Positions 9,342 through 17,733 of a stretch of DNA of 64,000 bases are shown here, piece after piece. Location: contig CAJYXJ010000041.1 of the NCBI GenBank assembly GCA_913778085.1, positions 24,560-88,559 on the forward strand. The letters run 5' to 3'. A program made the position numbers and the translations under genes. The stretch is from an uncultured Chryseobacterium sp. (GTDB taxonomy: Bacteria > Bacteroidota > Bacteroidia > Flavobacteriales > Weeksellaceae). A model generated the notes under the pieces. The model worked only from the letters and a program-made list of their open reading frames with translations. It ran no database searches and was not told where the DNA came from. Position 1 is the first letter of the stretch; every line of letters begins with the position of its first letter.

Positions 9342-9788
9342 TCAAATGAATTTGGAAAACCAGTAATTTTCAAGCCCGAAAGTTTTCTTGTATTGATGCA
9401 TCTCGGCAGAATTTTTCTCAAAGGACTCGTCATCTTCATCAAAAACAAGAGAATCGTGGATAATATTTCCACCAGAAACCATCATGAAAAAGTGATCAGC
9501 AGGAACATCCCCAAACTCAGAATAATGTTCGAGGATAAAATCCTTTATTTGATGATCCTCAATTATATTAATGAGTTTAGCAAGCGGAGACTGCTTTTCA
9601 AAGTCATCTCGTGATTTGATATAGTCAAAGTATATTGCAGTGCTTTCAAAGTCTCTTGCATTTTTGATCAGCCAGCAAAAATCGTCATCGAAGCGGAAAA
9701 ATAAGAATCCATCTGATTGTTTATAATCAATAGGGTCATCAATTTCAATGGTATCCTCTATGACAAGATAGGTGATATAACAGCTCAT
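9342..9788 (-). CDS. Hypothetical protein
   Basis: A 148-aa soluble acidic protein; no family recognised. The ATG at 9788 begins one base after the stop codon of the nucleoside phosphorylase gene, a spacing that suggests translational coupling. The sequence is rich in Asp, Glu and Phe, and the C-terminus …GLENYW-FSKFI is basic-aromatic. Just past the TGA stop the same frame continues for 17 codons with a near copy of this tail before another stop, so the gene end has been duplicated. It could be a small immunity- or SMI1/KNR4-like protein on composition, but this is a guess. Confidence 0.65.
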   Translation of the reverse strand: MSCYITYLVIEDTIEIDDPIDYKQSDGFLFFRFDDDFCWLIKNARDFESTAIYFDYIKSRDDFEKQSPLAKLINIIEDHQIKDFILEHYSEFGDVPADHFFMMVSGGNIIHDSLVFDEDDESFEKNSAEMHQYKKTFGLENYWFSKFI

Positions 9789-9789
9789 T

Positions 9790-10644
9790 TTAACTGATAA
9801 TTCTCTCCAATACCCATTCAATAAGGTTCTTTTCGGAAGCGTGATGATCAGAAGAGAATTCCCCGCGCCTCCTGTTGGCTATTACATTATTCACCGTAAT
9901 GGCTTTATGGCCTAAGAGTTTTGATAAAGCATAAATTGCAGAAGTTTCCATCTCAAAATTCGTCACGCCCAGATCATTTAATGTTTCAAGGAATTTATCG
10001 TCAACCGCCTTCAAGCGGAGTTGTCTTCCCTGTGGTGCATAAAAGCCCGGAAAAGTAGCCGTGTTGCCATGGTATTTTGCATCCTTATAGAGCTTACCCA
10101 GTTCCTCTGCCCAATCAGCGAAATACAGCATTGGTTTGATTTTAGCGTACGGGAACTTCTCTAAAAAGTTTTTAGAGAATTCGTTTTCAAACTCGTAATC
10201 CTGATAAAAATGCATCAGGCCGTCCAATCCTACAACATTTTGGGTAACCAGCATATTGTCTACCTGAACTTCAGGATTTACACTACCGCAGGTTCCCATT
10301 CTGAAAAGCTGCAATGCCGTGTGCTCGGATTTAAATTCCTTCTGCTGAAGGTCGATATTAACCAGTGCATCCAGCTCATTCATCACAATGTCGATATTTT
10401 CCGTACCGATTCCCGTTGACATTACGGTGATTCTTTCACCGCGAAGCATACCGGTATGTGTGTAAAACTCTCTTTTGTTTTTTCTGATCTCTACAGTATC
10501 AAAATACCTGGAAACCTTTGCTACACGATCCGGATCTCCCACAAGAATAATCTTTTCAGCGATATCTTCAGGTAAAAGGTTGAGATGGTAAACGCTTCCG
10601 TCTTCGTTCAGTACCAGTTCCGAAGCTGCAAGTTTATTGAGCAT
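9790..10644 (-). CDS. Nucleoside phosphorylase (uridine phosphorylase type)
   Basis: A 284-aa member of the PNP/UDP phosphorylase family, which splits nucleosides with phosphate into base and ribose-1-phosphate in salvage. Motifs visible are the phosphate-binding GDPDR (about 36-40), STGIGTENI (about 76-84), the GTCGS strand near 116, and the nucleobase/ribose motif FEMETSAIYAL near 230, which includes the conserved Met-Glu. These fit the uridine-phosphorylase branch better than hexameric DeoD. It is the first gene of a pair with the unknown gene downstream. Confidence 0.88.
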   Translation of the reverse strand: MLNKLAASELVLNEDGSVYHLNLLPEDIAEKIILVGDPDRVAKVSRYFDTVEIRKNKREFYTHTGMLRGERITVMSTGIGTENIDIVMNELDALVNIDLQQKEFKSEHTALQLFRMGTCGSVNPEVQVDNMLVTQNVVGLDGLMHFYQDYEFENEFSKNFLEKFPYAKIKPMLYFADWAEELGKLYKDAKYHGNTATFPGFYAPQGRQLRLKAVDDKFLETLNDLGVTNFEMETSAIYALSKLLGHKAITVNNVIANRRRGEFSSDHHASEKNLIEWVLERIIS

Positions 10645-11763: not shown

Positions 11764-14505
11764 ATGGATCTATTTGTATTAGTACCCATTTTTGGGGTTA
11801 TTGCCTTGGTGTATACTTACCTTCAGAGCAATTGGGTTAATAAGCAGGATGCCGGAAATGAAAAAATGAAACTTATCAGCGGCCATATCGCTGACGGTGC
11901 GATGGCCTTTCTGAAGGCCGAGTACAGAATTTTAACTTATTTCGTCATCGTCGTAGCCATTCTCCTGGCGGTAATGGGCATGAGCAATGCCAATTCGCAC
12001 TGGACCATCGGAATTGCTTTTATCTTTGGAGCGATGTTCTCTGCATCGGCCGGCTTTATCGGGATGAAAATTGCCACCAAAGCCAACGTGCGGACGGCAG
12101 AGGCTGCCAGGACTTCTCTTTCAAAGGCCTTAAAGGTTTCTTTTACCGGAGGTTCCGTGATGGGAATGGGGGTTGCCGGATTGGCCGTGTTAGGATTGGG
12201 GGCCTTGTTTTTAATTATCAGACAGATATTTGCTCCAAATTCCCCGGTGGACTCTCATGAAATGGAAAGAACCATCGAAATTCTTACCGGTTTTTCATTG
12301 GGTGCCGAATCCATTGCGCTGTTTGCAAGAGTAGGCGGAGGGATTTATACCAAAGCTGCTGATGTAGGAGCGGATCTTGTAGGAAAAGTAGAAGCGGGAA
12401 TTCCTGAGGATGATCCACGAAATCCGGCCACAATTGCCGACAATGTAGGGGATAATGTAGGTGATGTTGCCGGAATGGGAGCAGATCTGTTCGGTTCTTA
12501 TGTAGCGACTGTCCTGGCAACCATGGTGCTGGGAAGAGAAACCGTTTCCCAGGATTCTTTCGGAGGTTTTGCTCCAATCCTTTTACCGATGCTGATTGCC
12601 GGGACAGGGATTATTTTTTCAATTGTAGGGACTTTATTTGTAAGAATTAATGATAATGAAGATTCATCCACCTCCAGTGTTCAGAATGCCCTGAATCTGG
12701 GGAACTGGGGAAGTATTGTCATCACGGCTATCGCTTCTTATTTCCTGGTAACCTATATTCTGCCGGATAAAATGATACTGAGGGGACATGAGTTTTCCAA
12801 AATGGGCGTTTTCGGAGCCATTATGGTAGGGCTGGTGGTTGGAACTCTAATGAGCATTATTACGGAATATTATACGGCAATGGGTAAAAGGCCGGTTTCC
12901 AGCATCGTACGGCAGTCTTCAACCGGGCATGCTACGAATATTATCGGCGGTCTTTCCGTAGGAATGGAATCAACTTTGCTGCCGATTATTGTGCTGGCAG
13001 GCGGAATTTATGGTTCCTATCTGTGTGCCGGACTGTACGGTGTAGCTATTGCCGCGGCTGGAATGATGGCAACAACAGCCATGCAGCTGGCCATTGATGC
13101 ATTCGGGCCCATTGCAGATAACGCAGGCGGAATCGCTGAAATGAGCGAATTGCCGAAAGAAGTTCGTGAGAAAACGGATATTCTGGATGCCGTAGGTAAT
13201 ACAACCGCCGCTACCGGAAAAGGATTTGCCATTGCTTCCGCAGCACTGACGGCTTTAGCTCTTTTTGCAGCGTTTGTAGGTATTGCAGGAATCGATGGGA
13301 TCGATATTTACCGGGCGGATGTATTAGCCGGATTATTTATCGGAGGAATGATTCCTTTTATCTTTTCATCTTTAGCTATTACAGCTGTCGGGCAGGCAGC
13401 TATGGCCATGGTGGAAGAGGTAAGGAGACAGTTCCGTGAAATTCCGGGAATCCTGGAAGGAAAAGCACAGCCTGAATATGAAAAATGTGTAGCTATTTCT
13501 ACCGATGCCTCCATTAGAAAAATGATGCTGCCTGGAGCTATTGCTATTATTTCACCATTATTGATCGGATTTATTTTCGGTCCCGAAGTATTGGGCGGAT
13601 TTTTAGCCGGAGCTACTGTAAGCGGGGTGTTGATGGGAATGTTTCAGAACAATGCAGGCGGTGCATGGGACAATGCCAAAAAATCATTCGAGAAAGGTGT
13701 AAATATAAGCGGAGAAACCTATTATAAGGGTTCGGAACCTCATAAAGCTTCAGTAACCGGCGACACCGTTGGTGATCCTTTCAAAGATACCTCCGGGCCT
13801 TCGATGAATATTCTGATCAAATTAATGTCAATAGTATCACTGGTTATAGCACCAACCTTAGCGGTTATGCATAAAGATAAAATAGAGGCCAACCGGAAAG
13901 CGAAACTGGAAGCTTTAACGGGAACTGCCGGTATTGCTACCGTTAATCCGGCTGCTGCAGCGGCTAACGGGACCGGAGCCGTAGTGCTGCCTGAGGTGAA
14001 AGGTTATCTGAATGAAAACGGAGACTTCGTATATGATACTGGAGCGGTAAAAGAAGTAGAGCTGAAAGACGGTAAAAAAATAAAAATTGGGGAAGGCAGC
14101 CAGATGTATCAGCTGTACGATGCCGTTAAAAACAAAGATCAGGCAGTTTTGGATCCGAACAGGTGGTATACCATCGAGAACCTTTATTTTGAAACAGGAT
14201 CCAGCGATCTGAGACCGGGTTCCGATGCGCAGCTCCTCAATCTGGTAGAGCTCTTGAATGCTTATCCGACAATGAAAATAAAACTGGGGGGATACACCGA
14301 TAACAGCGGAAACGAAGAAAGCAACCAGAAACTATCCAACTTGAGGGCCCAGACTGCGAAGCTTAAATTATTGGAGCTTGGTGTAGGCGGCGACAGGGTG
14401 GAAGCGGAAGGTTACGGTTCCCAACACCCGGTATGCGAAGCCAATGATACTGAAGAATGTATGGCGAAAAACAGAAGGATTGACGTGAGAGTGCTGTCTC
14501 TATGA
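11764..14505 (+). CDS. hppA: Membrane-bound ion-pumping pyrophosphatase fused to an OmpA-like domain
   Basis: The core (about residues 1-700) is a membrane pyrophosphatase that couples PPi hydrolysis to Na+ and/or H+ export. The PPi-site motif [11 protein letters not shown] (D200-E210), the [26 protein letters not shown] segment after it, and many membrane helices are present. [10 protein letters not shown] has Ala482, the residue found in K+-dependent members, where K+-independent ones carry Lys. After an Ala-rich linker (about 700-800), residues 801-913 are an OmpA-like peptidoglycan-binding domain with the two ligand residues Asp846 and Arg861 spaced 15 apart, as in OmpA. Family members usually stop near 700 aa, so this is a true C-terminal fusion in one uninterrupted frame. 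It has its own terminator. Confidence 0.95.
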
Positions 14506-14525
14506 TCCGGATCAAAATAGTATTG

Positions 14526-14555
14526 AAAGCACTGCCGAACGCAGTGCTTTTTTTT
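14526..14555 (+). terminator. hppA terminator
   Basis: A perfect 10-bp stem (AAAGCACTGC with complement), a 5-base loop and a long T run, just after the stop codon. Confidence 0.9.
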
Positions 14556-17370: not shown

Positions 17371-17733
17371 ATGAAACAAACTGTTAAATCGATCCGCTCT
17401 TTCATAGGTTCCGAAAATTTTGAAACCAGCAGGAGCTTTTACAGAGATCTCGGTTTTGAAGAAATAGTAATCGATCCGAAAATGTCCCTGTTCAGATGGA
17501 ATGACGCCGGATTCTATCTTCAGGATGCTTACGTTAAAGACTGGATCGACAATACAATGGTTTTCATCGAAGTAGACAATACGGATGAATTTTTCCAACA
17601 GCTTTTAAGTTTAAATCTTACCGAAAAATATAATACCGCAAAAATATCTCCAGTGAGAACAATGCCTTGGGGAAAAGAATGTTTTGTGCATGATCCAAGT
17701 GGGGTTCTGTGGCATTTCGGGGAGTTTTTTTAA
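17371..17733 (+). CDS. VOC family (glyoxalase/bleomycin-resistance-like) protein
   Basis: A 120-aa protein with the two beta-alpha-beta-beta-beta modules of the vicinal-oxygen-chelate fold: FIGSENFETSRSFYRDLGF near the start and the C-terminal CFVHDPSGVLWHFGEFF strand. Single-domain members act as dimers, often metal-dependent lyases, dioxygenases or drug-binding proteins. The residues do not allow a substrate to be named. Confidence 0.82.
   Translation: MKQTVKSIRSFIGSENFETSRSFYRDLGFEEIVIDPKMSLFRWNDAGFYLQDAYVKDWIDNTMVFIEVDNTDEFFQQLLSLNLTEKYNTAKISPVRTMPWGKECFVHDPSGVLWHFGEFF

What the first reader, a model, noticed from the sequence alone, without database searches (positions are those of the whole stretch)
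11764..14505. Membrane pyrophosphatase fused to a peptidoglycan-binding OmpA domain
Residues 1-700 are an ion-pumping PPase; 801-913 are an OmpA-like domain with intact ligand residues D846 and R861. PPase C-termini face the periplasm in family structures, so this domain could tie an energy-coupling pump to the cell wall. Fusions like this may be lineage-specific and their purpose is not known to me. Seen: the fused frame. Known: topology and ligand residues. Inferred: wall anchoring.
Basis: partly seen in the sequence, partly recalled or inferred. Interest (0 to 1): 0.75.

Follow-up and report, generated by a model that had tools for sequence, protein, structure and literature searches.

The report
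Pyrophosphate pump with wall-binding tail
A bacterial membrane pump that runs on pyrophosphate carries, on its outer end, a domain of the kind that grips the cell wall; related pumps carry other outer domains at the same spot, so this end looks like an exchangeable attachment site.

Summary
The fusion is real. ORF 11764-14505 (+, 913 aa) joins a complete membrane pyrophosphatase (Pfam H_PPase 12-695) to an OmpA domain (808-897). It is not an assembly join: 142 of 150 same-genus genomes list it end to end, 2 more in two frames, and 6 show only OmpA-level matches. OmpA is under purifying selection (dN/dS 0.05); D846 is kept in 50 of 51 and R861 in 51 of 51 sequences. Stand-alone homologues of the tail have lipobox-like starts or are DUF937-OmpA proteins, which supports a periplasmic place. 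Best reading: a K+-dependent H+ pump whose dimer carries two peptidoglycan anchors. Wall binding is inferred, not shown. mPPase-OmpA fusions are already in print for Burkholderiales, role open (PMC11210485, passages), so the kind is known. What I did not find in print: Bacteroidota mPPases gained or lost OmpA repeatedly (at least 7 changes forced), and the same C-terminus also carries YceI, FKBP or Cys-rich tails. Two cores 97% identical bear unrelated tails.

The parts
11764..14505 (+). whole CDS, mPPase-linker-OmpA, 913 aa plus stop
11797..13848 (+). H_PPase domain (residues 12-695)
   Evidence: model matches VrPPase 4a01 with TM 0.87 of target
12307..12309 (+). E182, taken as position 5.43 (inference: aligned to a Ser of the Vigna helix-5 stretch); marks the F. 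johnsoniae type of H+-PPase
   Evidence: 38 of 38 in A3, 51 of 51 in the family set; meaning of E5.43 from PMC10897367 (passages)
13870..13992 (+). linker: helix about 704-718, then disordered 718-743 (pLDDT under 50)
   Evidence: dN/dS of 701-790 is 0.167
13993..14163 (+). small pre-OmpA beta subdomain (residues 744-800, ..GDFVYDTG..), shared with stand-alone OmpA lipoproteins
14164..14502 (+). OmpA C-like domain (residues 801-913)
   Evidence: model matches 5wtp, OprF 5u1h, Pal 1oap/4g4w
14299..14301 (+). D846, ligand residue
   Evidence: 50 of 51 family sequences, 43 of 43 named fused loci
14344..14346 (+). R861, ligand residue
   Evidence: 51 of 51 family sequences, 43 of 43 named fused loci
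14525..14551 (+). terminator-like hairpin with T run just after the stop; gene appears monocistronic
   Evidence: 5 such sites found in 3.1 kb, 3.3 expected from shuffles; this one has 11 pairs

Best explanation
This is a K+-dependent, proton-pumping membrane pyrophosphatase of the inner membrane. Its C-terminus leaves the last transmembrane helix into the periplasm and carries a flexible linker, a small beta subdomain and an OmpA C-like domain. Since mPPases work as homodimers, each pump would present two such domains. The domain binds the diaminopimelate of peptidoglycan through D846 and R861 and so tethers the pump to the wall, holding it in place rather than driving the cycle. The tail was taken from a stand-alone OmpA protein of Bacteroidota (lipoprotein or DUF937-TM-OmpA type). 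It is one of several periplasmic tails that Bacteroidota mPPases acquire and exchange at this end. Shown: fused frame, conservation, domain identity, recurrence, tail variety. Inferred: periplasmic side, peptidoglycan binding, tethering, H+ specificity, donor.
For: Domains and ligand pair. Both halves fold as expected: mean pLDDT 83.1 for the whole model, 86.4 for the tail alone. mPPases act as dimers (PMC6882861, passages). OmpA under purifying selection, median dN/dS 0.051 against 0.167 for the linker and 0.020 for the core. 7 of 7 short stand-alone OmpA homologues taken from this family have a lipobox-like N-terminus. The own paralogue L032 is DUF937 plus OmpA with, by reading, a hydrophobic segment between them. 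YceI, FKBP and BON domains sit in the same C-terminal tail in relatives. OmpA tails have long linkers: 65-135 aa in 55 of 56 fused proteins measured, one reading of -5 being a failed parse. E182 is 38 of 38 in A3, and F. johnsoniae H+-PPase has its glutamate at 5.43. Core and OmpA trees both reject a single clade of fused proteins.
Against: No binding, localisation or pumping data. One of 51 relatives (L041) has G at the D846 position, so the pair is not strictly required. Six of 150 genus genomes show no mPPase-level match. Within the family, G403, G404 and G420 keep an mPPase without OmpA, and G397 seems to, from a partial hit at a contig start. The best NCBIfam model calls the core sodium-translocating, though the V-type H+ model also passes its cut-off. 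The structure alignments were shallow (38 and 26 rows).
Confidence: 0.6

Rival explanations
1. The fusion serves the envelope, not the pump: an abundant inner-membrane protein is used as a base for an inner-membrane-to-wall tether, replacing the lipoprotein or DUF937-TM base of the stand-alone OmpA proteins. The pump is a carrier and the tail could sit on another protein.
For: Stand-alone homologues have other membrane bases. OmpA is also found on a Methylocystis P-type ATPase.
Against: The tail stays on mPPase across a whole genus. The same site also carries domains not known to bind wall (YceI, FKBP, Cys-rich), which a wall-tether role would not explain.
Confidence: 0.2
2. The tail is a periplasmic regulator or ligand sensor of the pump. 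Binding of peptidoglycan or another ligand alters the last helix, which holds ion-gate residues.
For: The tail hangs directly on the last helix; D/N16.46 and K16.50 of that helix belong to the ion gate (PMC10897367, PMC6882861, passages). Tails of several kinds recur at this spot.
Against: 26 residues of predicted disorder between helix and domains would blunt mechanical or allosteric coupling. Identity in residues 701-790 is low (median 61%).
Confidence: 0.13
3. Assembly or frame artefact joining two neighbouring genes.
For: None. G644 and G677 show frame breaks, but inside the PPase part.
Against: Same frame in 142 of 150 same-genus genomes and fusions in 43 of 80 named loci from a separate collection.
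Confidence: 0.01

Closest known systems
mPPase with C-terminal OmpA-like domain of Paucibacter sp. KCTC 42545 and other Burkholderiales (PMC11210485; passages read)
   Same: mPPase followed by an OmpA-like domain; role stated there as still to be elucidated
   Different: Predicted K+-insensitive, 810 aa with a domain of about 110 residues; here Ala (not Lys) at the K+ site, 913 aa, with a longer linker and an extra beta subdomain; Bacteroidota. The terms chryseobacterium and flavobacteri occur 0 times in its main text; its supplements were not seen
H+-PPase of Flavobacterium johnsoniae (E5.43 type; PMC10897367, PMC6882861, passages)
   Same: Glutamate at helix 5, here E182
   Different: mPPases of the g4 genomes in the neighbouring family f2 are about 66% identical and match only to about residue 700-718 of the query; the three g4 tails I read (L115, L120, L126) show no OmpA
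OmpA C-like peptidoglycan-binding domains: PA0833, OprF, Pal, C. gingivalis OmpA, MotB
   Same: Fold (TM about 0.7-0.9 of target for most single-domain entries, 0.57 for MotB 3s0h), ligand pair, dimer habit (PA0833); MotB likewise puts such a domain on an inner-membrane energy-converting protein (recalled)
   Different: Not attached to a primary ion pump (recalled)
DUF937-TM-OmpA proteins and OmpA lipoproteins of Bacteroidota
   Same: Homologous tail, in the lipoproteins including the pre-OmpA subdomain; one DUF937-OmpA protein in this genome (L032)
   Different: Membrane base is one helix or a lipid, not a pump

Membership tests
Membrane-bound pyrophosphatase (PF03030) | Whole-length family profile | tested here: met
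   12-695 matches profile 1-645 of 645, 907.5 bits
Membrane-bound pyrophosphatase (PF03030) | Fold of solved mPPases | tested here: met
   Model against 4a01 and 5lzq, TM 0.87-0.88 of target
K+-dependent, E5.43-type H+-PPase | Glu at 5.43 and no Glu at 6.53 or 6.57 | tested here: met
   E182 38 of 38; G244 and A248, aligned to G and E301 of the Vigna enzyme, 38 of 38. That E182 is 5.43 is my alignment, not a numbering tool
K+-dependent, E5.43-type H+-PPase | Ala, not Lys, at the K+ site of helix 12 | tested here: met
   A482 38 of 38; which residue is diagnostic is partly recalled, partly Table 1 of PMC10897367 as shown
K+-dependent, E5.43-type H+-PPase | Pumps H+, activated by K+ | not testable with these tools
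   Needs vesicle assay; the best NCBIfam name says sodium, the V-type H+ model also passes
OmpA C-like peptidoglycan-binding domain (PF00691) | Profile over the curated cut-off | tested here: met
   56.5 against 27.2 bits
OmpA C-like peptidoglycan-binding domain (PF00691) | Asp and Arg that hold diaminopimelate | tested here: met
   D846 in 50 of 51, R861 in 51 of 51; both in 43 of 43 named fused loci
OmpA C-like peptidoglycan-binding domain (PF00691) | Binds peptidoglycan | not testable with these tools
   Needs pull-down
K+-insensitive Burkholderiales mPPase-OmpA (PMC11210485) | K+-insensitive core | tested here: not met
   A482 at the site, [10 protein letters not shown]
MotB/PomB-type stator | Single TM helix with partner channel (recalled) | tested here: not met
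   Base is a whole mPPase; only the tail resembles it

The most novel reading that the evidence does not exclude
The C-terminus of Bacteroidota mPPases is a general, exchangeable docking site for periplasmic modules (wall anchor, YceI lipid-binding type, FKBP chaperone, Cys-rich tails). In the OmpA form, wall load or wall contact passed to the last helix, which holds ion-gate residues, tunes pumping, so that pyrophosphate-driven proton export is coupled to the state of the cell wall.
Probability: 0.08. Interest if true: 0.85.

Novelty: new variant of a known kind. Interest (0 to 1): 0.52.

Why it matters
Primary ion pumps are usually drawn as free in the membrane. A pump that evolution has repeatedly joined to a wall-binding type of domain, and elsewhere to other periplasmic domains, makes it testable whether pumps are placed or regulated from the periplasm. 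The role of mPPase-OmpA fusions is stated as open in print (PMC11210485, passages). Named Chryseobacterium, Kaistella, Spirosoma, Runella and Dyadobacter species with the fusion are given here, and Bacteroidota relatives without it give natural controls.

Tried and rejected
Assembly join or neighbour genes: rejected by the family census and a separate named collection. Single origin of the fusion: rejected on the PPase core tree (29 rows held together, p 5e-5) and the OmpA tree (37 rows, p 0.00038; Weeksellaceae plus Spirosomataceae alone p 0.0029). Caveats: the core tree is a quick one, the OmpA alignment is short (177 columns), its bootstrap had not settled, and counts of changes cannot tell gain from loss.

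Rows dropped. Core tree: 25 of the 43 named fused loci were used. OmpA tree: 61 of the 80 named loci were used, 13 near-copies and 6 others left out. L088, L217 and L221 dropped as long branches. L002, L112 and L092 dropped, and L088 kept out of the tested group; 24 rows dropped (distant, long-branch or redundant). Own OmpA paralogues were meant to be but the script added none; L032 was added.

Selection: the dS medians are 1.5-1.7, near saturation, and only 594 of 1275 pairs were usable for OmpA, so the ratios are rough.

Tail census: loci were picked mostly for long frames, so the counts (of 57 tails) are biased. The fairer sample is every third row of the 150 listed: 50 rows, of which G1086 was dropped as cut by a contig end, leaving 49. 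Those 150 rows are the best-scoring of 395 genomes, so they lean to cores like this one; two same-class mPPases outside it, L030 and L106, have short ends of 17 and 23 aa.

YceI linker lengths by pattern failed for most rows and are not used. Plasmid collection: of 377 matching records none covers 80% of the query in one place. Literature: beyond PMC11210485 the listings showed no paper on such tails (listings only, 20 of 41 shown).

Full report
Observation. The 913-aa frame at 11764-14505 is intact and holds a complete H_PPase (12-695) and an OmpA domain (808-897), both over Pfam's cut-offs. The own genome has one mPPase match. The gene stands alone: flanking genes are SUI1 and a class I/II aminotransferase on the other strand, and a terminator-like hairpin lies at 14525-14551. 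One soluble pyrophosphatase (PF00719) was found in each of 10 genus genomes tested, including this one and the six without an mPPase match.

Not an artefact. Of 297 family genomes searched, 150 belong to the window's genus. 142 of these list a match spanning query 1-912 or 1-913 in one open frame of 902-922 aa. Six (G516, G540, G580, G591, G625, G642) have only OmpA-level best matches; 3 candidates were scored per genome. Two (G644, G677) were not in the capped list of 150; one search shows their gene in two frames, with OmpA in frame with the C-terminal piece. Of 32 other genera of the family, one genome each: 12 fused (10 in one match; G405 and G411 in two matches within one frame, seen), 4 with an unfused mPPase (G403, G404, G420, and G397 from a partial hit), 1 undetermined at a contig end (G406), 15 without an mPPase-level match at 1e-20.

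Wider searches. In the order (296 genomes) 35 listed rows reach residue 912 or 913, all in this family; other families' rows stop near 695-773. In the class (395 genomes) 8 listed rows reach 911 or beyond: 3 of this genus, 4 of f10, 1 of f70. Both lists are capped and would show a fusion with a divergent tail as a short match.

Named relatives. A scan with an alignment of tails kept 80 loci; 43 are mPPase-OmpA fusions (L154 and L163 are cut at the 5' side): Chryseobacterium, Kaistella, Spirosoma, Runella, Dyadobacter, Lacihabitans, Emticicia, Jiulongibacter, Taibaiella, a Ferruginibacter MAG, MAGs labelled Chitinophagaceae, Cytophagia, Cytophagaceae, Spirosomataceae, Flavobacteriaceae and Bacteroidetes UBA2364, and a MAG labelled Phycisphaerales whose core groups with Taibaiella (97) and may be misbinned (inference). 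The window's core is nearest to Chryseobacterium sp. JUb7 (96%).

Tail and function. D846 and R861 keep the 15-residue spacing of Asp271/Arg286, which bind diaminopimelate in A. baumannii OmpA (PMC5974059, passages). Across 51 fused genes of the family D846 is kept in 50 and R861 in 51; across the 43 named fusions both are kept in 43. Median dN/dS is 0.020 for the core, 0.167 for residues 701-790 and 0.051 for OmpA; dS is near saturation. C891 and C899 are invariant in those 51 and could form a disulfide (inference); in A3 only 20 and 18 of 38 rows have them. The full model (pLDDT 83.1) shows disorder at 718-743, then a small beta subdomain and OmpA; the tail alone gives 86.4. Foldseek matches the core to plant and Thermotoga mPPases and the tail to OmpA, OprF, Pal, PA0833, YfiB and MotB domains.

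Side of the membrane. mPPase C-termini lie on the side away from the catalytic site (recalled). Independent support here: short stand-alone homologues from this family start with lipobox-like signals (7 of 7), and others are DUF937-OmpA proteins (6 of 10 proteins scanned had both). Relatives carry YceI, FKBP or BON domains in the same tail.

Which ion. E182 sits where, by my alignment, F. johnsoniae H+-PPase has its glutamate (E5.43; PMC10897367, PMC6882861, passages). It is 38 of 38 in A3, and the positions aligned to 6.53 and 6.57 hold G and A. The best NCBIfam model says sodium; the V-type H+ model TIGR01104 also passes its cut-off. I lean to H+.

Recurrent origin. On a tree of 73 PPase cores the OmpA label needs 9 changes, at least 7 forced by starred branches; holding 29 fused cores together is rejected (p 5e-5). 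On OmpA trees the label needs 7-8 changes, 3 forced; one clade is rejected (p 0.00038). In one search the main fused group of this family, 18 rows, is one clade (100/100), while L282 and L283 of this family and the MAG L212, whose proteins are only 60-65% identical to the window's over the matched stretch, have tails inside a clade of stand-alone OmpA proteins (100/99); L283 is a long branch. This points to at least two captures in this family alone.

Exchangeable tails. In a long-frame sample of 57 tails Pfam found OmpA in 12, YceI in 11, FKBP in 2 and BON in 1 (the BON row is L088 by my reading, and one of the 12 OmpA rows is probably the degenerate tail of L131). In the fairer sample of 49, 11 have YceI, 2 OmpA and 1 FKBP; 18 have eight or more Cys, and all 49 have at least 49 residues after the [16 protein letters not shown] stretch, against 17-25 in many other mPPases, mostly of other classes. 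L139 (YceI) and L140 (Cys-rich) have cores 97% identical; their DNA matches at 87.5% over 2104 bases and the match stops about 20 codons past that stretch.

Literature. mPPase with an OmpA-like C-terminal domain is reported for Paucibacter and other Burkholderiales, with the role left open (PMC11210485, passages only). Listings of searches naming OmpA, YceI, FKBP or Chryseobacterium with pyrophosphatase showed nothing closer; the library lacks most subscription papers.

Verdict. A real, conserved, repeatedly evolved fusion; a new variant of a kind already noted in another phylum. Wall tethering is the likeliest role but untested. The wider result, an mPPase end that takes up different periplasmic modules, is the more surprising part.

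Noticed in passing
L228:1286-4435 (Methylocystis rosea plasmid NZ_CP044329.1): A heavy-metal P-type ATPase of 1049 aa ends in an OmpA domain (946-1039): a second kind of pump fused to OmpA.
   Followed up: partly
L112:3036-3731, L134:2855-3568, L250:34-750: mPPases whose C-terminal tail is an FKBP-type peptidyl-prolyl isomerase (FKBP_N plus FKBP_C; 2 of 57 and 1 of 49 tails; the loci are named by my reading).
   Followed up: partly
L132, L133, L135, L136, L138, L139, L141-L144, L147, L235, L245, L254, L260, L266, L267: mPPases with a YceI-like tail. Pfam counted 11 YceI tails in each of two overlapping samples; the loci named here are by my reading of the sequences.
   Followed up: partly
L137, L140, L246, L252, L263 and others: Cys-rich mPPase tails, many with repeats like CDMxKCxxMTKEECAxxCD; 18 of 49 sampled tails have 8 or more Cys, 10 of 49 the repeat. 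Pfam listed no family for such tails in that sample.
   Followed up: partly
L088:3099-3971: mPPase with a BON plus OmpA tail (998-aa frame), a pairing that recalls mycobacterial ArfA (Rv0899) (recalled).
   Followed up: no
L131:799-1413: mPPase tail that looks like a decayed OmpA domain without the NRR end (my reading, not tested).
   Followed up: no
G012 and G095: In these two relatives the soluble pyrophosphatase gene lies directly beside the mPPase gene on the same strand; in the window's genome it lies on another contig.
   Followed up: no
window 9345-9821 (-) and 17371-17730 (+): Two neighbouring ORFs (159 and 120 aa) with no Pfam match at E 0.001.
   Followed up: no
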